The notes beneath the pieces were generated by a model. The model was not told the origin of the DNA, searched no databases, and was given only the letters and a program-made list of their open reading frames with translations. 64,000 nt of DNA from Periplaneta americana (lineage: Eukaryota; Arthropoda; Insecta; Blattodea; Blattidae): assembly GCF_040183065.1 (NCBI RefSeq), contig NC_091120.1, forward strand, positions 15,455,708 to 15,519,707, in the 5' to 3' direction. Below, piece after piece: positions 10,501 through 19,820 of the stretch. The position numbers and the translations under genes are program-made. Every line of letters begins with the position of its first letter. Positions within the stretch are counted from its first letter, which is position 1.

Positions 10501-13191
10501 CTGCAAAAGTAGCGCCTTGTGTGTGAACAGACTCGCAACCTCCAGTTGCAACTTTTGCAGCACTCGGGTTGTGCAGCACGAAAAGTAGCATGCAGCACGC
10601 TACTTTTGGCTTACGTGTGAACACGACAGCAACTTTTGCAGCTGCAGTACAAAAGTAGTGATGTGTGACCGTACCTTTAGTAATAACAGTAAATTAATAG
10701 AGACATGTCTGTGTACTTTTCTCAGCTTTGCTTTAAGTAGTAGAGAAAATTGTTAATTTTTGTTATTTGTCCAGGGCACAAATTGAAGAAAATACTTGTT
10801 TTCAGTGAATTCGAATAAGATGTCCTGGTAGAAGCATCTTCTTTTTCGATTTCGTCCAAGGTGCATGCATTCTTTGTTGACAATTTACAGCACAAATCCA
10901 AGAAGTAACTTTTATTGTATTCAAATACATTGCTCTGGACCAAAGAACAAATATCAACACAATTTTCTGTATTATTTTAAGTCATGAAAGACGATACATG
11001 ACAGCTGTCATTGGTAATGAGTGTAAAAGAAAAAGGACATGGAATTGCTAGTCAGGCAAATTATCGAATAACGGTAACGCTACAACATGCATCCAGTGCG
11101 ACTGCTTGTATGTGTCTTCTTCAATAAATGTAGGCTAAGTAGTTGGAAATTCTGGTAGGATGGAAGAGAAGGCCTTATGGCCTTAATCCTGTCAGATTAA
11201 ATAAATTATTATTATTATTAGAATGATAAAATTAAGTCTTAACCGTTAATTGGTCATTAAAGTGTTCACTTCTTATCAAGTGTTTGTTACTTTAGCTCTT
11301 TGACTTCTTATCTGATCTTTTCAGTGTCACATCACACACTGAATGTTTATACTTTGTAGTGTCTTTACAAACCGAAAAGACAAAGTATATGATTATGTCT
11401 CGTGACCAGAATATTATACGAAATGGAAATATAAAAATTGGAGATTTATCCTTCGAAGGAGTGGAAAAATTCAAATACCTTGGAGCGACAGTAACAAATA
11501 TAAATGACACTTGGGAGGAAATTAAACGCAGAATAAATATGGGAAATGCGTGTTATTATTCGGTTGAGAAGCTTTTATCATCTAGTCTGCTGTCAAAAAA
11601 TCTGAAAGTTAGAATTTATAAAACAGTTATATTACTGGTTGTCCTGTATGGTTGTGAAACTTGGACTCTCACTTTGAGAGAGGAACATAGGTTAAGGGTG
11701 TTTGAGAATAAGGTGCTTAGGAAAATATTTGGGGCTAAGAGGGATGAAGTTACAGGAGAATGGAGAAAGTTACACAACGCAGAACTGCACGCATTGTATT
11801 CTTCACCTGACATAATTAGGAACTTTTGTAATTCATTTTTGTGTTCAGATAAGTCTAGTAATATAATGAAAAATATGTAAGTTCAATCATAAGTCTTATG
11901 ATTGAACTTACATATTTTTCATTATAATTAGGAACATTAAACGCAGACGTTTGAGATGGGCAGGGCATGTAGCACGTATGGGCGAATCCAGAAATGCATA
12001 TAGAGTGTTAGTTGGGAGACCAGAGGGAAAATACCTTTGGGGAGGCCGAGACGTAGATGGGAGGATAATATTAAAATGGATTTGAGGGAGGTGGGATATG
12101 ATGATAAGAGACTGGATTAATCTTGCTCAGGATAGGGACCGATGGCGGGCTTATGTGAGGGCGGCAATGAACCTTCGGGTTCCTTAAAAGCCATTTGTAA
12201 GTAAGTAAGTAAGTGTCTTTACAAATGAAAACTGATAGCAGTGGTAGTACCACCATTTAAAATAATTTCAAAGATTTGTGAGTGCTATGTCACATCAGGT
12301 AATCATTTTTTCCTTGTTTAACAGATACAAGAAATACGTGAAGAACCAGCTGTTGGTGTAAGTGTTGAGGGTGCTGTGTTTGGAAGGCGAAGCAAGATTG
12401 GCGTCATTACCATTGTGACACCCAAATGGGCCTTTCTATTTGATATCCATACTCTTGGTGATGAAATGTTTAACAACGGGCTTCGTGATATTTTGGAAAG
12501 CAAAAATATTGAGAAAGTTATGCATAACTGTCGCCTGGTGTCTGATTGCTTGCATCACAAACATAAAGTTACTATTGACAATGTATTTGACACCCAAGTA
12601 AGTACACTGAAGAGTTTGAGTTTCAAAAGTACAGTAGAACTTGGTTATAACGACATCCAAGGGACCTTAAAAATTATGTTGTTATAAACGAGTGTTGTAG
12701 TAACCGAGATTCACATTATCAACCTAGTGAGGTGGAAAATGAAAAATAACAAACTTAATTAGACTTATTTTAGATTTATGTATTGACTTTTATGTCTAGA
12801 ATGAACATAATAAAATACACGTAGGCCTACAATTATAAATACAGTATTCTGTATTAAAACAGTTTGTTCAGTACTCACAAAACTACCAATACACACTTTC
12901 TAGGACTAAATTACGTTCTATGTTCATAATTTCAGTTGCAATTTCACTGCTCCCTTCCCTAGCTTCATAGAACATGTTCATAATTCTAATGACTTCTAAA
13001 GTGTCACTCACTTCTTTTAGTGGCCATACTGCGTTAAAATGCGTGCACTTAATGAAAACTTCCTGTCGAAACTGTCCAAGTATAATATATTTGCCAGCAT
13101 TATGCATTTTTGAGACTGTGAATATTTTATTTTATCTATCTATCTGTCTGTCTGTCCGTCCGTCCGTCCGTCCATCCATCCATCCATGCTG

Positions 13192-14458: not shown

Positions 14459-17400
14459 GTAACTACTTTAATGTTTAGAATTTCTGGAACATGTTCCCTG
14501 ATACGTTCTACGTCGATTAAACCTAACATACCTCTATCCAAAGTTCTATAGGTTTGGATTATTTGTACCCCAAAATTAAATTTTTGAGTTTAATTTTATC
14601 GCTGAATACTGAAAGAAGTAACACAAATTTCCGAAAGTGACATGTCTATGTCATTATTTTTATTATTACCATATTACATTTTAATATCAACTACTTGTGA
14701 GTATGAAAGAAGCAGAGCAAAATTGAAAAAAAAAAAATGTTCTTAAGATTCCAAACACTGTACCGTAAAGTGGGGTGACTTTGAACGCTGAGGTGACTTT
14801 GAACAGTAATTTAGCGCCTTTCTAAATTAAATGCTGTACCTAATTGCGAAAAAACTGTTTAAGTTGTCAATAAATTAGTTCACTTTTTTCGCAATTGGGT
14901 ACAGCATTTAATTTAGAAAGGAGCTAAATTACTGTTCAAAGTCACCCACTTTACGGTACTTCTTGAAATTTGCCAATAGGCACGTGAAAATACCTGTGCA
15001 CTAGGAATCCTACGATCTCGGAACCGTGCTTGATATGCCAAAACAGCTGCTGTTGCATTGCCATCACATGTCCATACACATAAACTATGTCGGTGTATTC
15101 CTGATGTGTGTACACAAAAGGCGTGTTTTAATGGTCAAAAATCAATAAAAAGACTAGTCACAATACGGTTTATTTTTCTTACAACTGTTATTTTAAACTG
15201 TTGTCTGTTTCGTTTCCTTAGCAACCTAAACAATTTTAATTTAATTTCTCTTAAAAGTAAAATTTCCTTCATTCACTGCTTTTCAAATGTTTCTTATGTA
15301 TCTCTACTTAGTAATGCCATAAAATAGTCCTTGTATAAACGGTATAATGCTTGGAGCTGCAAGAAGTTCTATTTTTTCCAGCTCTGTTATCTCTGTAACC
15401 TCTCAATTTCGGATATAGGTATGTTAGGTTTAATCAACGTAGAACGTGTCAGGGAACATGTTCCAGAAATTCTAAACATTAAAGTTGTTACACCCTATAT
15501 ATTAAAATTATATAATTAATTATAATTTGTTATTTATCCAACGCCTTAGATACCATTCTTCACTAATCATGGCCTCCTATATCATAACCTACCTAGTACA
15601 CATATTGATTCTAAAATCCATGCCATGATATGTGATTATATGAGGACTTATTTTCAACATATTTTGTTTTATAAAACAGAATTTTTCGTTATGGTCATGG
15701 ATAAAATTACGTATGGTACTTGTGAGCGTGATCTTTATTGCGCTCGTGTAATTTAAGCATGCTGCTGACGCCTCATGCTTAAATCTTTCCACTCACGCAA
15801 TGAAGATACACTTACCTCACAAGTACCATAAGTAACTATTGAAATAGTGTTAAGGTCACAAGATACTCATGGGTGAAAAGCAGGTGAAATTAATTCCAAA
15901 AGCAGGACACAACAGATTTTGTTGAGGTTTCTATATCTTATTATTATTATTTTTTTTTTGGATTAAAATGTAGAATTAATTTTCTTAAATTTTGTTCAAA
16001 TTGTTATTTTATTCATAGTAGCTCCACCAAAATTCAATATGCTGCATCTTCCACATGACCATAATGTTATTGCACACACTTATGTGGTTTTGGGAAACCT
16101 GTAAAATGATTTCCATTCACTCTGAATTTGGTAATTAAAACAGCCTATATGGCACAAATAACACCTCTTCCAGCCATTTTCAAGACATACGAAATAAAGA
16201 GAAAACATAATTTTTACCAAAACAAATTGTAACTTCCATGGACGCTGCTGCTAGTTATCTTATTGAACCGCTAGATGGCAATTGCAGAGTATGTCGACAG
16301 TTTTTACCATTGCTTTCCATCATTGTAGTAGTAAGCTATTTGGTGTTATGTAAGTTATGCTACTTAGGTTGTGTGCTAAATATTGTAGAATGTATAAGAT
16401 TGTCATTTGTCTTGTTGTGTAATTTAGTTTGCTTAAAAAATAAATTTTGTGCGAGATCGTGCGTATTTGCTTGGTTTCCACACAAAACCAATCTGCGGTA
16501 AGTCTAAAATTCCACATTCAGTATTCCCAACCTAACACACATAACAATTTCCCTCTTCTTACCGCTTAAGTGACATATTGATTTTACTGCTTTAGGCTTT
16601 TAACATATTATTTTTAGAGACGTTCAATGTAGTATTAATTATAAATTGGAAACTTACCACTGCAATTTCACCTAAATTGCACTGTTAATTATTGTTTTTA
16701 AATATTTGCAAAAATTAAGTAAACTCTACAACTCCACTAAAGTTACTGCATTCGTGATGCAAGTAACATTAAGGAAGCCGTGAAAAAATCAACAAGATTC
16801 CAGATGCCGATGTTATTACTGCAATATGTTATATAAATAATATTGTTAAAATATTAAAATGAAAAATAAATCATTACATAACCTTACCGTTTGTTTTAAG
16901 TTCGCAATTATAGACGGGGGGGAAAAAAAGACAGATGTATATCACGGCCTGCTGGAGTATAGTAAACACAGAAAACATTTTAAAGCAACAATGTTGAAGA
17001 TAGATATTTTTGTTTTGCAAATTTGCCGTCATTGAACAGAAACCAAGATGGATAGTTCATTGCAACTAATTAGAAATTCCTCTTTCAGGTATGTAATAAA
17101 CGATCTTCACACAAAATAATGTACGGTACACGAGTGGTATATTTTCTTTCAATTCTCGGAAATTAAAAAAGCTCAACTATGTTTCGCTTTTTCAAACTTT
17201 TCCTCGAACATGAAAACTTCAACATACCGCTCTTGTAACACATATTACTATTGTAAATTAGTGAACTTGTGTGTTTCTAGGTAGATGTATTGAAATGGAT
17301 TAAACGACCCTTATCAATAGAGCTTAGGTCGGCAGCAGTAAAGAATGGTATTTACTTACTTCACCTCAAGAAAAGGATTCTTGCAGAGATGATGAATACA

Positions 17401-19820
17401 TTCCATCAATGTGTGAACTTGTTCCTGAATGTAGTGAGGGATGCGGACCAACAGGAAGCCAGTGAACACCAGGTCTGTAATAACTAGACTGGGCACTAAA
17501 AAACATAGATTTATGCACCTAAAATACAATTTCAAGCAGCTAAAAATACTATTTTATGCAGCTAAATGTAATTTCTATCCACACAAACTACAGTAAGTCG
17601 CTTGGGGGGTATCTTTTGTACATATATATACCATTGCTGCTGATACGACTGAATTTCTTGTACCAAATTTTTTGTATTATATTCCTTCCTTATGTCATTG
17701 TTTCTCATTCTATCCCTTAATGTGACTTCCATGGTGTGTCTTAAAAACCCCATTTCTGATGGTTCTATTCTTCTTCTATCTTGTCTCATCACCCATGTTT
17801 CACTTCTGTAACATAAGGCCAAAAAAGGATCCAATTTAATTCAGAATACAAATACAAGCCTACCTTTTACATCCATCAAAAGACTAATTAAAAATAAATA
17901 TAAAATCAAGCAAAACCAAGCACTATGTACCAAAGCCAAAGATAAAAAATGGAGCATTTTAATAAAAATAACAGAAATTATTCCAGAAATCCCACGTAAA
18001 TCTGCAGTAGCAAAATTCAGACTGCTTACAGAACACGATTATTTGGCCAAACACTTGAATAAAATAGGAATTTACACAAATCCAAATTGCCCTCTATGCA
18101 ACAAAGAAGAAGAAATGGCTGAAGATCATCTACAAACCTGTGAAGTTCTACCTGATGGATCCACCACAGAGAAATATTGGAGAGCAAGAACCGCTAATGG
18201 CTTCATTGCCAAAGCCCGGCATTAGATAACAACAGCAACAACATAAGACTGGTTTAGATATAATGTTATGCATTCTGATTTTTAGATCCTGTCTTATGTT
18301 CTTTCCAAAATATCTATTTATACATTAATTTAATTTATACAACTGAATAGACTACAGTGGACTATAGTGGACTTTATGTTGTCAGCAAACAGCTGGATAC
18401 ATTAAGAAGATTGATCGATTGATTGATTTAATTTATTGTATTTCTGGGTATTCTCTTCTAGATCAGCATTAAGTATATGTGTTGAAATAGTACAACCAAG
18501 ATATTTAAATGCGTGAACTTGTTCTATTAGTTCTGAATTAATTTCTATTTTGCTCTTAATTGGAATTTCTCATGTATAGCCATTGCTTTTTTTTTTTTTT
18601 TTTAACAGTGTTTATAATTTATTTCGCAGGTATATGCCCTTGGGATTTGTCATTTTCCATTCCTCTAGGATCTTATTTATATAAATATCAAACAACAAAA
18701 ATGATAGGACACATCCCTGTCTTAAACTCTGATTTACTATGAAGGATTTCTCATTTTTATTATCTTTGCTGATTATTAAAGCTGTTGAATCATATGATTT
18801 TAAGGCATTTATCAAGTTCATAGGTAAACTATATTCATTTAAGATGTTTCATAATTTTCTTCTTGGAACTCTGTCATACGCTTTCTCATAGTCTACAGCT
18901 GTTTAAAATATTTGAAGAAAATACCCCTGTTAAGTAAGTGACACGTGTAACAGCCCCCATTTTGATGACCCTATGACATGAATGAACAGTACATATCACT
19001 CAAGTTTAAAAGTGTCCTATAATACAAAGAAATTATCTAAATTAAAAAAGGAACGTAAAAGTTATATATTACAGTTATATGAACACTAATAAATATAATA
19101 CAATTATTAAAAACTAGTAAAAGTGAAACATGTTTCGGAGATGCTTCTCCATCCTCAGTGACTTTACCACGACGGCTGGTTCAGGTGATCGAACTGCGTT
19201 GTTGGGTGACTTAAAGGAGACTTTTCACTTAAACCAGCCGTTGTGGTAAAGTCACCGAGGATGGAGAAGCATCTCCGAAACATGTCTGACTTTTACTAAT
19301 TTTTAATAATTATATTATATTTGTGTTCATATAACTGTAATATATAATTTTTACGTTTCTTATCCAATCCATGCACACTGTATAATTGGCCCAACATATG
19401 TGGTTTATCTGTGAAAATTAAAAAAGGAAGTTCAGATCAGATACACATTGTACATAAATTCTGCAACCAACAATATATGAAATAAAGTTGCTAAAGTTAA
19501 AAAAATATGTATCAACTTCAGAAATTGTGGTACGTAATAATGAAATGATCAGAAATAATGATAATGTGCATTATAATATGGGATTTTAATTGGGAATTTA
19601 AAATATGTATGCAAAACTGAAATATGCTCTGAAATATGCTCTCCACTATACTGACAAAATACTGTACAGTGCAGTGTTATATTGTGAACGGCAACTTGTG
19701 AAAATACTTTTATTCTTGTGTTTGCAGGCTAATGACACACTGGTGCCACTGGAAGTGTTGTCATTCAACAATCCTAGAAGTCAGATGACAGACAAGGAAG
19801 TGGTTAGAAATGGTGTCTGA
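7377..19820 (+). CDS. EXD1: EXD1 orthologue, piRNA-biogenesis exonuclease-like protein (six exons, 5' partial)
   Basis: Exons 7377-7562, 9591-9691, 12325-12597, 13626-13766, 17281-17472 and 19728-19820 join in one frame, all with AG acceptors and GT donors, giving at least 327 residues and a stop. The core [47 protein letters not shown] and NVFDTQVGD follow animal EXD1 closely. EXD1 proteins belong to the DEDD exonuclease fold but have lost catalytic residues; here the first DxE motif reads SVE. In mice EXD1 binds RNA and works with TDRD12 and PIWI in piRNA biogenesis. The family N-terminus is Sm-like; its first part is missing because no upstream exon was found. It is shorter than mammalian EXD1 (about 500 residues) for lack of the long C-tail. 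Confidence 0.9.
7673..7821. repeat. 149-bp flanking duplication, left copy
   Basis: Matches 9213-9361 at 143 of 149 positions with no gaps (six substitutions counted by eye). It ends exactly where the poly-T (reverse poly-A) of the minus-strand LINE begins, as expected of a target-site duplication, though an unusually long one. Confidence 0.85.
7822..8546 (-). pseudogene. Jockey-type LINE 3' portion
   Basis: Minus strand: [48 protein letters not shown], then after a stop [20 protein letters not shown]. This is the C-terminal reverse-transcriptase and thumb region of Jockey elements. The poly-A tail appears as T9 at 7822. The 5' end is truncated and abuts the CAA tail of a second LINE. Confidence 0.85.
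8547..9212 (-). pseudogene. RNase H-bearing LINE, 3' portion, copy 1
   Basis: A (TTG)n run, i.e. a (CAA)n tail on the minus strand, is followed by a cysteine-rich C-terminus ([22 protein letters not shown]) and RNase H segments ([31 protein letters not shown]). Frameshifts break the frame. It matches copies at 40569, 53494 and 45338. RNase H places it in the I/R1/LOA-like group; exact clade unsure. Confidence 0.85.
9213..9361. repeat. 149-bp flanking duplication, right copy
   Basis: Right partner of 7673-7821. It begins directly after the 5'-truncated end of the RNase H LINE. Confidence 0.85.
9591..9691 (+). CDS. EXD1: EXD1 exon
   Basis: Acceptor TGTGTTTCAG, donor GTAAGT. Reads [20 protein letters not shown] then [13 protein letters not shown], the helix leading into the nuclease-like fold. 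Confidence 0.88.
9868..10675. mobile_element. foldback DNA element with GGTACGGTCACAC ends
   Basis: Ends GGTACGGTCACACGTTTCTA and (reverse complement of right) GGTACGGTCACACATCACTA. TTAA precedes the left end and TTTA follows the right, suggesting a TTAA target. Both arms of roughly 200 bp repeat TACTTTTGCAGC and CTGCAG motifs. No transposase. Confidence 0.75.
10676..11375. other. intron sequence with an (ATT)n-tailed LINE end
   Basis: At 11140-11220 the sequence AAGGCCTTATGGCCTTAATC leads into AAATAAATTATTATTATTA, a common insect LINE 3' end. Nothing else is recognised. Confidence 0.5.
11376..12215 (+). pseudogene. TAAG-tailed LINE, copy 2
   Basis: In frame from [11 protein letters not shown] through [14 protein letters not shown] to [10 protein letters not shown], then broken by a roughly 105-bp insertion that repeats TAATTAGGAAC on both sides. 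It resumes with [20 protein letters not shown] and ends in a TAAG tail. Lies in an EXD1 intron. Confidence 0.88.
11863..11925. repeat. perfect 30-bp-arm palindrome
   Basis: The arm ATAATGAAAAATATGTAAGT and its next 10 bases are followed by GTC and the exact reverse complement. It forms the right half of the small insertion in LINE copy 2. Confidence 0.92.
12325..12597 (+). CDS. EXD1: EXD1 exon, core of exonuclease-like domain
   Basis: 91 codons, phase 0 at both ends. [20 protein letters not shown] to TIDNVFDTQ. The DEDD first motif is degenerate (SVE); [10 protein letters not shown] corresponds to motif II. Confidence 0.95.
12631..13110 (-). pseudogene. pogo/Tigger-like fragment
   Basis: Starts ACAGTAGAACTTGGTTATAA, a typical pogo-group end. 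The minus strand at 12883-13107 reads [20 protein letters not shown], resembling the tail of TIGD/CENP-B-type transposases. Confidence 0.5.
13130..13255. repeat. compound tetranucleotide microsatellite
   Basis: Runs of CTAT, CTGT, CCGT, CCAT, CTAT and CTGT in succession. Confidence 0.9.
13626..13766 (+). CDS. EXD1: EXD1 exon
   Basis: Acceptor TTATTTCAG, donor GTGAGT. Reads [20 protein letters not shown] then [27 protein letters not shown] spans the intron and keeps the conserved aspartate. Confidence 0.93.
14405..14454. repeat. (TA)n microsatellite
   Basis: About 45 bp of TA repeats directly before the left end of the DUF4817-type element. Confidence 0.9.
14763..14956. mobile_element. 194-bp mariner-type MITE nested in the DUF4817 element
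   Basis: Ends CCGTAAAGTGGGGTGAC and CCGTAAAGTGGGTGAC, with inverted repeats covering most of its length and TA on both sides. The two arms share GTGACTTTGAACAGTAATTTAG and beyond. Confidence 0.88.
14957..15130 (-). pseudogene. DUF4817 helix-turn-helix remnant of a transposase
   Basis: The minus strand, with one frameshift, reads [12 protein letters not shown] then [20 protein letters not shown] and [13 protein letters not shown]. This fits the YG-GNA-A---Y--RFP-RR-P pattern of the insect DUF4817 domain. Confidence 0.75.
15496..15711. other. unassigned intron sequence
   Basis: AT-rich. A stretch TTTATCCATGACCATAACGA occurs on the + strand near 13801 and in reverse near 15690, the only internal similarity noticed. 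Confidence 0.3.
15712..15830. mobile_element. 119-bp palindromic MITE
   Basis: TATGGTACTTGTGAG at 15712-15726 is matched exactly in reverse complement at 15816-15830. An inner pair ATTTAAGCATG and CATGCTTAAAT is also exact. Confidence 0.7.
16447..17252. repeat. dispersed repeat, copy 1
   Basis: Closely similar to 36998-37690 over its whole length, except that it keeps about 100 bp (near 16805-16915) missing from copy 2. It ends about 28 bp before an EXD1 splice acceptor. No ORF or TIR recognised; probably an unclassified transposon. Confidence 0.85.
17281..17472 (+). CDS. EXD1: EXD1 exon
   Basis: 64 codons, acceptor TGTTTCTAG, donor [26 protein letters not shown] then [16 protein letters not shown] matches the end of the EXD1 nuclease-like domain (RP--- L---A--A-YLL-L---LL-EMM). 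Confidence 0.93.
17562..17834 (-). pseudogene. LINE reverse transcriptase C-terminal fragment
   Basis: Reads [20 protein letters not shown] then [20 protein letters not shown] on the minus strand, the region after the RT palm in RTE-like or related LINEs. Confidence 0.7.
17840..18240 (+). pseudogene. RNase H LINE C-terminus, plus strand
   Basis: [20 protein letters not shown] then [20 protein letters not shown] and a stop at 18225, followed by a CAACAGCAACAACA tail. Same protein type as the minus-strand copies but a divergent subfamily. Confidence 0.8.
18440..18912 (-). pseudogene. LINE reverse transcriptase palm fragment
   Basis: Minus strand reads [15 protein letters not shown], then [17 protein letters not shown], and a separate [10 protein letters not shown] segment. 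The catalytic YADD region is deleted. Together with 17562-17834 it may be one LINE split by the RNase H fragment. Confidence 0.75.
19117..19168 (-). ncRNA. hammerhead ribozyme motif (minimal type I), minus arm
   Basis: Core CUGAGGA intact, stem II GGAGA/UCUCC with loop AGCA, then GAAA, a two-base-pair stem III (AC-AU-GU), and stem I strands GGUAAAGUCA and UCACUUUUAC. The cleavage-site triplet is GUU and one stem I pair is lost. An extra U lies between the core and stem II. Confidence 0.6.
19245..19296 (+). ncRNA. hammerhead ribozyme motif (minimal type I), plus arm
   Basis: Stem I GGUAAAGUCA pairs with UGACUUUUAC (seven contiguous pairs, a one-base slip, then more). Core CCGAGGA has C in place of the invariant U4. 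Stem II GGAGA/UCUCC, then GAAA, stem III AC-AU-GU and cleavage triplet GUC. The same extra U precedes stem II. The U4 change probably inactivates this copy. Confidence 0.6.
19728..19820 (+). CDS. EXD1: EXD1 terminal exon with stop
   Basis: Acceptor TTGTGTTTGCAG. Reads [20 protein letters not shown] then [10 protein letters not shown] and TGA. Frame continues from the previous exon in phase 0. Confidence 0.88.
   Translation, partial: ANDTLVPLEVLSFNNPRSQMTDKEVVRNGV

What the first reader, a model, noticed from the sequence alone, without database searches (positions are those of the whole stretch)
19051..19359. Inverted pair of minimal hammerhead ribozymes in an EXD1 intron
Both arms of a 130-bp inverted repeat fold as type I hammerheads: C(U/C)GAGGA core, GGAGA/UCUCC stem II, GAAA, a two-base-pair stem III and GUC or GUU, with stem I strands that pair over at least seven bases. 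One arm has the intact core but GUU; the other has GUC but a U4-to-C change, so together they show the ancestral ribozyme. Both have an extra U before stem II. Hammerheads are known from Penelope-like elements, which these ends resemble. The inverted arrangement would also make a long hairpin across the intron RNA.
Basis: partly seen in the sequence, partly recalled or inferred. Interest (0 to 1): 0.8.

Follow-up and report, generated by a model that had tools for sequence, protein, structure and literature searches.

The report
Ribozyme-bearing Penelope retrotransposon insertion, inverted pair
Beside or inside an EXD1 gene of a large animal genome lies a small decayed insertion of a Penelope-type jumping element that carries two facing hammerhead-ribozyme copies, and its relatives in the same genome suggest that such elements copy themselves into DNA from both sides of the cut at once.

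Summary
The core motif occurs 1,037 times in the genome (reversed control 0); 549 copies have exact CTGANGA...GTC. Rfam does not recognise it, but three subfamilies keep stem I paired, and the 'extra U' belongs to an AUG placed as in a published Penelope-like element (PLE). The 343-bp unit contains the start of a PLE ORF, and a decayed PLE with reverse transcriptase carries the same pLTR.

New here: of 56 loci read, 41 have both insertion ends placed, and all 41 join one short end with one 'tail' end; none is short/short or tail/tail. Centres differ in all 32 pairs compared. Most arms are spliced sense copies. None of 64 inner ends lies at the ribozyme cleavage site. This favours two-sided target-primed reverse transcription over self-priming or MITE-like spread. 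Inverted pLTRs, tails and PLE hammerheads are known; the strict one-of-each rule I did not see in six searches. The window's ribozymes are damaged and probably inert. No activity was tested.

The parts
19039..19053 (.). left target-site duplication AAATTAAAAAAGGAA (boundary may shift a few bases, the element end is similar)
   Evidence: D3; score 15; score >=12 in 1 of 1640 cross-locus controls
19054..19222 (-). short-end (S) arm, spliced pLTR copy in inverted orientation
19116..19168 (-). hammerhead with stem I strands; core motif 19127-19158, intact CUGAGGA, GUU triplet, C.C mismatch in stem I
19223..19224 (.). centre junction between the two arms, TT
19225..19414 (+). tail-end (T) arm, spliced pLTR copy
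19244..19297 (+). hammerhead with stem I strands; core motif 19255-19286, CCGAGGA (U4 to C), GUC triplet, 7-bp stem I
19261..19263 (+). AUG at stem II (relic PLE start codon, inferred; its U is the 'extra U')
   Evidence: same placement reported for PAc, PMC11167929
19364..19414 (+). 'tail' between the two inferred RT start sites
19415..19429 (.). right target-site duplication AAATTAAAAAAGGAA
   Evidence: (D3)
12322..12684 (+). EXD1 exon (ORF range), host gene
17281..17484 (+). EXD1 exon (ORF range), host gene

Best explanation
A non-autonomous derivative of a Penelope-like element inserted beside or in EXD1. Shown: its ends, its 15-bp TSD, its kinship with a PLE pLTR, and that its arms have the spliced form of that pLTR. 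Inferred: a PLE protein cut both DNA strands, staggered by about 15 bp, and each 3' end primed a cDNA on PLE-type RNA, one starting at the short site and the other at the tail site; the two cDNAs were joined in the middle, giving a head-to-head inverted pair. One cDNA often ran off the RNA 5' end, the other was truncated. The hammerheads are part of the RNA around the start codon; they do not set the ends of the cDNAs. The window copy has since decayed, and each ribozyme faces its complement, so it is probably inert.
For: Ends: 41 of 56 loci have one S and one T end, 0 S/S, 0 T/T (final count by eye). The one locus read of a second PLE family does the same. TSD score >=11 in 26 of 41 against 4 of 1640 cross-locus controls. 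Centres: 32 of 32 pairs of inner-end coordinates differ; 21 of 32 have an arm ending at unit position 1-5 (likely RNA 5' end), only 1 both. Splicing: the PLE copy has GTGAGT...TTTTGCAG where 45 of 56 loci are joined (read by eye). PLE link: PF00078 at 1e-8, 48% to the RT of a 605-aa PLE ORF with GIY-YIG, hammerhead pLTR at L083:1995. PAc cleaves and extends both strands and starts at two sites that bound the tail (PMC11167929, parts 1 and 2 of 4 read).
Against: 11 of 56 loci show a single arm, 3 of 56 have one odd end, 1 was not read to its end; L048's tail end stops about 17 nt early. In L031 the two arms differ in subfamily markers, and in L020 and L028 one arm alone has a 4-nt deletion, so one RNA template for both arms is not certain. 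The partner arm is the unique nearest relative for only 13 of 48 arms, tied for 6 more. PAc in vitro showed no difference of start site between strands, which does not by itself give the one-of-each rule. No enzyme or ribozyme was tested.
Confidence: 0.74

Rival explanations
1. Self-priming: one cDNA (or an antisense template) snaps back on itself and is copied, so that the second arm is a copy of the first.
For: Proposed for rotifer Penelope elements from palindromes at inverted junctions, with an antisense template (PMC3846280, Discussion read). Arms within a locus are closer (0.051) than arms of different loci (0.121).
Against: A copy of an S-started cDNA cannot contain the tail, and a copy of a T-started one has no reason to stop at S; the 41 placed loci all have one of each. 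Inner ends of the two arms differ by 10 or more positions in most of the 32 pairs. The intron is removed in sense orientation in 45 of 56 loci, so the template was sense RNA. L031 arms differ in subfamily.
Confidence: 0.1
2. MITE-like or fold-back element: an inverted-repeat unit with fixed S and T ends that is copied as such; centres vary by later deletion inside the palindrome.
For: Fixed ends, TSDs and inverted arms look like a MITE; palindrome centres are unstable (recalled).
Against: 21 of 32 pairs keep an arm to position 1-5 while the other is cut elsewhere in 20 of them, not expected from random central deletions; arms as short as 9 nt (L033) and 33 nt (L061); tandem units and preceding-unit sequence in the centre (L018, L044); PLE ORF start inside the unit.
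Confidence: 0.08
3. The hammerhead-like folds are a by-product of a conserved PLE 5' region (start codon, protein-binding hairpin) and do not cleave.
For: Rfam silent; two-pair stem III with a 2-nt loop; weak folding z-scores; no inner cDNA end at the cleavage site (0 of 64). In PAc the hammerhead needed the protein and was dispensable for insertion in vitro.
Against: Core, stem II, stem III and a GUH triplet kept in 44 of 56 arms; the only common core change is at N7, which is free in hammerheads (recalled); stem I stays paired across subfamilies; cleavage site at the 26th base from the A of the AUG, the paper giving 26 bp for PAc.
Confidence: 0.2
4. Animal retrozyme: a hammerhead satellite spreading through circular RNA made by double self-cleavage.
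For: Array of 11 hammerheads at mostly 343-bp spacing (L018), unit size like published non-LTR retrozymes (PMC7229834, passages).
Against: Minimal hammerhead; insertion ends are PLE-type start sites and no inner end is at the cleavage site; spliced transcripts starting near position 1; contains a PLE ORF start.
Confidence: 0.1

Closest known systems
Minimal type I hammerhead ribozymes of Penelope-like elements (Cervera and de la Pena 2014; Lunse et al. 2017: both seen only as cited in PMC7761336 and PMC6155905, passages)
   Same: core, minimal stem III, location in the pLTR, many dispersed copies
   Different: not shown to cleave here; Rfam models miss it; three subfamilies with paired stem I in one genome
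PAc, Poseidon-type PLE of Anolis (PMC11167929, parts 1 and 2 of 4 read)
   Same: hammerhead at the start codon, same distance from AUG to cleavage site, two RT start sites bounding a tail, AT-rich targets
   Different: here non-autonomous units; the two start sites are used once each per insertion, which the PAc in vitro data did not show
Adineta vaga Penelope elements with inverted pLTRs (PMC3846280, passages and Discussion read)
   Same: head-to-head inverted pLTR, tail on one of them, 8-10 bp TSDs, variable structure
   Different: the paper favours self-priming on antisense RNA; here arms are sense and mostly spliced, and ends obey a one-of-each rule in 41 of 41 placed loci
Non-LTR retrozymes of animals (PMC7229834, passages)
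   Same: short tandem hammerhead units of about 300 bp
   Different: ours is PLE-derived with a minimal hammerhead and PLE-type insertion ends

Membership tests
Type I hammerhead ribozyme (minimal, PLE type) | C3U4GAN7GA9, GAAA, NUH triplet and three stems in type I order | tested here: met
   44 of 56 aligned arms intact with GUH; window minus arm intact with GUU, window plus arm has U4C
Type I hammerhead ribozyme (minimal, PLE type) | stems kept by compensatory change | tested here: inconclusive
   96.0% of cells paired, slid controls 29-43%; both-side changes at col 10-55 (4 rows) and col 15-50 (1 row); cells changed on both sides 5 (reached by 2 of 500 shuffles), covariation score reached by 4 of 500, but pairs changed on both sides reached by 162 of 500; relatedness of rows not corrected
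Type I hammerhead ribozyme (minimal, PLE type) | match to Rfam hammerhead models | tested here: not met
   no hammerhead match at E<=10; Rfam models are of larger hammerheads (recalled)
Type I hammerhead ribozyme (minimal, PLE type) | self-cleavage at the NUH site | not testable with these tools
   no RNA or in vitro data
Penelope-like element | PLE reverse transcriptase in an element with the same pLTR | tested here: met
   L081/L083 carry the unit's ORF start, RVT_1 (1e-8) and the hammerhead pLTR; 48% to the L078 ORF
Penelope-like element | GIY-YIG endonuclease | tested here: inconclusive
   L083 C-terminal piece gives no GIY-YIG hit in Pfam, only a weak colinear match (32%, E 0.009 against 8 loci) to the GIY-YIG part of L078; L078 itself is over the PF01541 cut-off
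Penelope-like element | pLTRs, tail, TSD of about 8-20 bp, AT-rich target | tested here: met
   target richness seen by eye only
Penelope-like element (window copy) | encodes its own protein | tested here: not met
   361-bp insertion, no long frame; non-autonomous derivative
MITE / fold-back DNA transposon | fixed terminal inverted repeats copied as a unit by a transposase | tested here: not met
   ends are unequal (S and T), 32 of 32 centres differ, PLE ORF start in the unit
Non-LTR retrozyme | canonical type I hammerhead with loop-loop contacts, circular RNA | tested here: inconclusive
   tandem array present (L018) but stem III is minimal; loop contacts not examined; no RNA data

The most novel reading that the evidence does not exclude
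PLE integration is obligatorily two-sided: each insertion is built by two target-primed cDNAs, one from each reverse-transcription start site and never two from the same, on an asymmetric protein-RNA assembly. The inverted pLTR pair is then the default product and not an accident, second-strand synthesis is primed on RNA and not on first-strand DNA, and the hammerhead plays no part in making the cDNA ends.
Probability: 0.5. Interest if true: 0.75.

Novelty: new member of a known kind. Interest (0 to 1): 0.5.

Why it matters
How PLEs, relatives of telomerase, complete an insertion is open; the 2024 in vitro study names second-strand synthesis and repair as steps still to be validated. A genome with about a thousand core copies, many of them short insertions with readable ends, TSD and centre, gives a statistical test: strict pairing of the two start sites constrains the geometry of the integration complex, and spliced arms fix the polarity of the template. 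The lack of inner ends at the ribozyme site agrees with the view that the PLE hammerhead is not needed to make the insertion substrate.

Tried and rejected
Rfam at permissive threshold: only matches below the gathering score, the best microRNA-like ones from the long hairpin, taken as chance. The first choice of the 343-bp unit was an interrupted copy, redone with an intact one. The first automatic end classes had loose limits: L054 and L033 were first scored odd or single and moved to S/T after reading their ends and TSDs; L067 fell within the S limit at both ends by BLAST and was read by eye as having one odd end. L046 may be an S end lost in a microsatellite but is counted odd. L058, L059 and L060 share flanking sequence beyond the tail, so they are not independent. 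L017 as a full-length PLE (two direct hammerheads 4.6 kb apart): no PLE frame seen. The top GIY-YIG hit on C85 is a UvrC-like bacterial gene by my reading of its frame, not a PLE. One RNA template for both arms: splice state agreed in 19 of 19 readable pairs (17 spliced, 2 with intron, none mixed, by eye; about 3.6 mixed expected by my hand calculation), but L031, L020 and L028 speak against it, so left open. Searches for other hammerhead families and for spliced against intron-bearing copies in the whole genome did not complete.
Full report
What is there. The inverted repeat is real and each arm holds the 32-nt hammerhead core, minus strand 19127-19158 and plus strand 19255-19286. The 29-nt core with up to 3 mismatches does not arise in 100 shuffles; a looser core pattern does (3 hits, 0.54 expected). 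A 15-bp direct repeat at 19039-19053 and 19415-19429 shows that 19054-19414 is one insertion; the arms cover about 170 bp and the right end carries an extra ~50 bp. EXD1 is upstream on the same strand (two exons matching PDB 5fiq colinearly); a downstream exon was not confirmed.

Relatives. The window lies in a 3.23-Gb assembly of 91 contigs. The core with up to 3 mismatches occurs 1,037 times, the reversed control 0. Exact CTGANGA...GTC copies number 549, control 0. Among the 100 places listed, the 12 opposite-strand neighbours within 400 bp are all in minus-then-plus order; same-strand neighbours at that distance are the L018 array. I read 55 loci from these lists plus the window, 56 in all.

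Is it a hammerhead? In 56 aligned arms the core, stem II, GAAA, minimal stem III and a GUH triplet are kept in 44; in the 45 arms with the exact motif N7 is A in 17, G in 27, C in 1, and the triplet is GUC in 42, GUU in 2, GUG in 1. Three subfamilies have stem I strands AAAGTCA/TGACTTT, AATAGTCA/TGACTATT and TTAGTCA/TGACTAA (read). With the named structure 96.0% of cells pair, against 29-43% when slid; both-side changes are at col 10-55 in 4 rows and col 15-50 in 1 row. Five cells changed on both sides are reached by 2 of 500 shuffles and the covariation score by 4 of 500, but the number of pairs changed on both sides is not exceptional (162 of 500). Mean major-base frequency is 0.974 in the core and 0.984 in the 5' strand of stem I, against 0.942 upstream, 0.929 in the 3' strand and 0.916 downstream, a modest contrast. 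Rfam finds nothing. The extra U is the U of an AUG: ATGGAGAAGCATCTCC starts in stem II and the cleavage site is after the 26th base counted from its A; for the anole PLE PAc the paper gives 26 bp and an ORF beginning at stem II (PMC11167929). A second PLE family here has another hammerhead-like sequence with an ATG at the same place.

It is Penelope-derived. L018 is an array of 11 minus-strand hammerheads, mostly at 343-bp spacing, with one inverted tailed arm, in one insertion with a TSD-like repeat. Positions 236-343 of the unit encode a stretch (KASEEKLVNFYYDVRLKIELLNKK...) that continues, in L080 and L081, into a longer frame. L081 and L083 together form a decayed PLE: RVT_1 at 1e-8, 48% identity (5.5e-29) to the RT of a 605-aa open frame in L078 whose C-terminal part is over the GIY-YIG cut-off. 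L083 ends with the same pLTR, a decayed hammerhead at 1995 and the tail end. L080 joins the ORF start, with stops, to the pLTR, as expected of an internal deletion derivative. The endonuclease part of L083 is only weakly supported.

Splicing. In L083 the pLTR has GAACCAGACG, then GTGAGT, about 350 bases, TTTTGCAG, then TCGTGG. Most elements read GAACCAGCCGTCGTGG, the spliced product apart from one base. By eye, 45 of 56 loci have at least one arm of the spliced form (counting the diverged junction of the third subfamily), 9 have an arm with the intron end (L017, L022, L034, L037, L052, L058, L059, L060, L068; L017 has both kinds), and 3 cannot be told (L047, L057, L070). The templates were therefore sense RNA. 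In 19 pairs where both arms can be read, 17 are spliced in both, 2 unspliced in both, none mixed.

Ends. Each arm stops at one of two places: short (S), near unit position 177, or tail (T), near 234. The automatic count gave 32 of 41 loci with both ends placed, 18 S/T and 14 T/S. After adding 15 loci and reading the ends, 41 of 56 loci have one S and one T, none has S/S or T/T; 3 have one odd end (L029, L046, L067), 11 a single arm (L017, L037, L038, L043, L047, L058, L059, L060, L066, L068, L069), and one (L062) runs off the fetched stretch. L048 is counted as T although its tail stops about 17 nt early. L033 has a 9-nt S arm and L061 a 33-nt T arm, so very short arms are easily missed and some single arms may be of this kind. 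Independent choice with equal odds would give 32 of 32 with probability 2e-10. TSD-like repeats score at least 11 in 26 of 41 against 4 of 1640 cross-locus pairs; the boundaries of 11 of the 41 loci were set by hand in that script, a few repeats are low-complexity (L022, L027, L064), and four misses (L035, L040, L054, L055) show repeats or on reading. One locus of a second PLE family, that of L078 (L079 with L084), has arms of 1,593 bp at 99.75% identity, one short and one tailed end (tail about 50 bp) and a 15-bp TSD read. In one search (108 matches listed, 150 of 7,667 candidates scored) GIY-YIG matches within 11 kb of each other are in minus-then-plus order in 10 of 10 cases.

Centres. All 32 pairs compared have different inner-end coordinates. 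In 21 of 32 an arm reaches position 1-5, a likely RNA 5' end, and in only one do both. The S arm is the longer in 19 and the T arm in 12. None of 64 inner ends lies at position 95-101 around the cleavage site (97/98); the loci were chosen for an intact core, which constrains one arm of each pair but not the other.

Mechanism. The published PLE enzyme cuts and extends both strands and starts at two internal sites that bound the tail (PMC11167929). Two-sided priming with later joining gives head-to-head pairs, two start-site ends, TSDs and private centres, as seen. Self-priming on antisense RNA, proposed for rotifer elements (PMC3846280), does not give one tail and one short end, nor spliced sense arms. 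Why the two start sites are always used once each is not explained: two enzymes on one RNA would predict a longer S arm, seen only as a weak excess (19 to 12), and the arms of L031 differ in subfamily, those of L020 and L028 in a 4-nt deletion.

Literature. Inverted pLTRs, tails on one of them, TSDs and PLE hammerheads are known (PMC3846280, PMC11167929, PMC6155905, PMC7761336; passages, one section or parts read). In searches of the held open-access library, judged from listings and the passages read, I saw no statement that the two ends are always one of each; Craig et al. 2021 is not held and the 2005-2006 PLE reviews were not read.

Window copy. One arm lacks U4, the other has a stem I mismatch and GUU; transcripts would pair arm to arm. 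I expect no ribozyme function there (inference).

Noticed in passing
L079 with L084 (G000:C15:136936799-136941240): Second PLE family with head-to-head arms 99.75% identical over 1,593 bp, 15-bp TSD, one tailed and one short end, and a different hammerhead-like sequence (CTGATGATGTTGACATGGTCAACGAAAACG) with an ATG at stem II.
   Followed up: partly
L020, L028, L031, L036: A 4-nt deletion directly after the GUC triplet (GTCTGACT to GTCT) recurs in 5 of 56 aligned arms, in three loci in one arm only; L045 and L053 look similar in another subfamily.
   Followed up: partly
L018 1549-6329: Tandem array of 343-bp hammerhead units in one PLE-type insertion; seven full units are 99.4-100% identical to the reference unit, which is one of them: a retrozyme-like satellite seed.
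   Followed up: partly
L062 3-500: Array of 47-bp-spaced sub-repeats of unit positions 11-63 beside the S arm; a similar sub-repeat in L024.
   Followed up: no
unit position 29-40 (window 19184-19195, minus strand): GGTTCGATCACC in the pLTR resembles a tRNA B box (recalled consensus); a pol III promoter was not tested.
   Followed up: no
G000:C85:1043112-1043339 (L072): UvrC-like frame beside other bacterial-looking frames (my reading): contig C85 may be of bacterial origin (symbiont or contaminant).
   Followed up: no
window 4481-60415 (D4, D6, D7, D9): Five copies of a repeat with a retroelement-like frame (RWAGHVARM...); its family was not searched.
   Followed up: no
window 17812-18222 (+) and 18615-18848 (-): Reverse-transcriptase remnants close to the element: zf-RVT and RVT_1 matches, both below the Pfam cut-off.
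   Followed up: no
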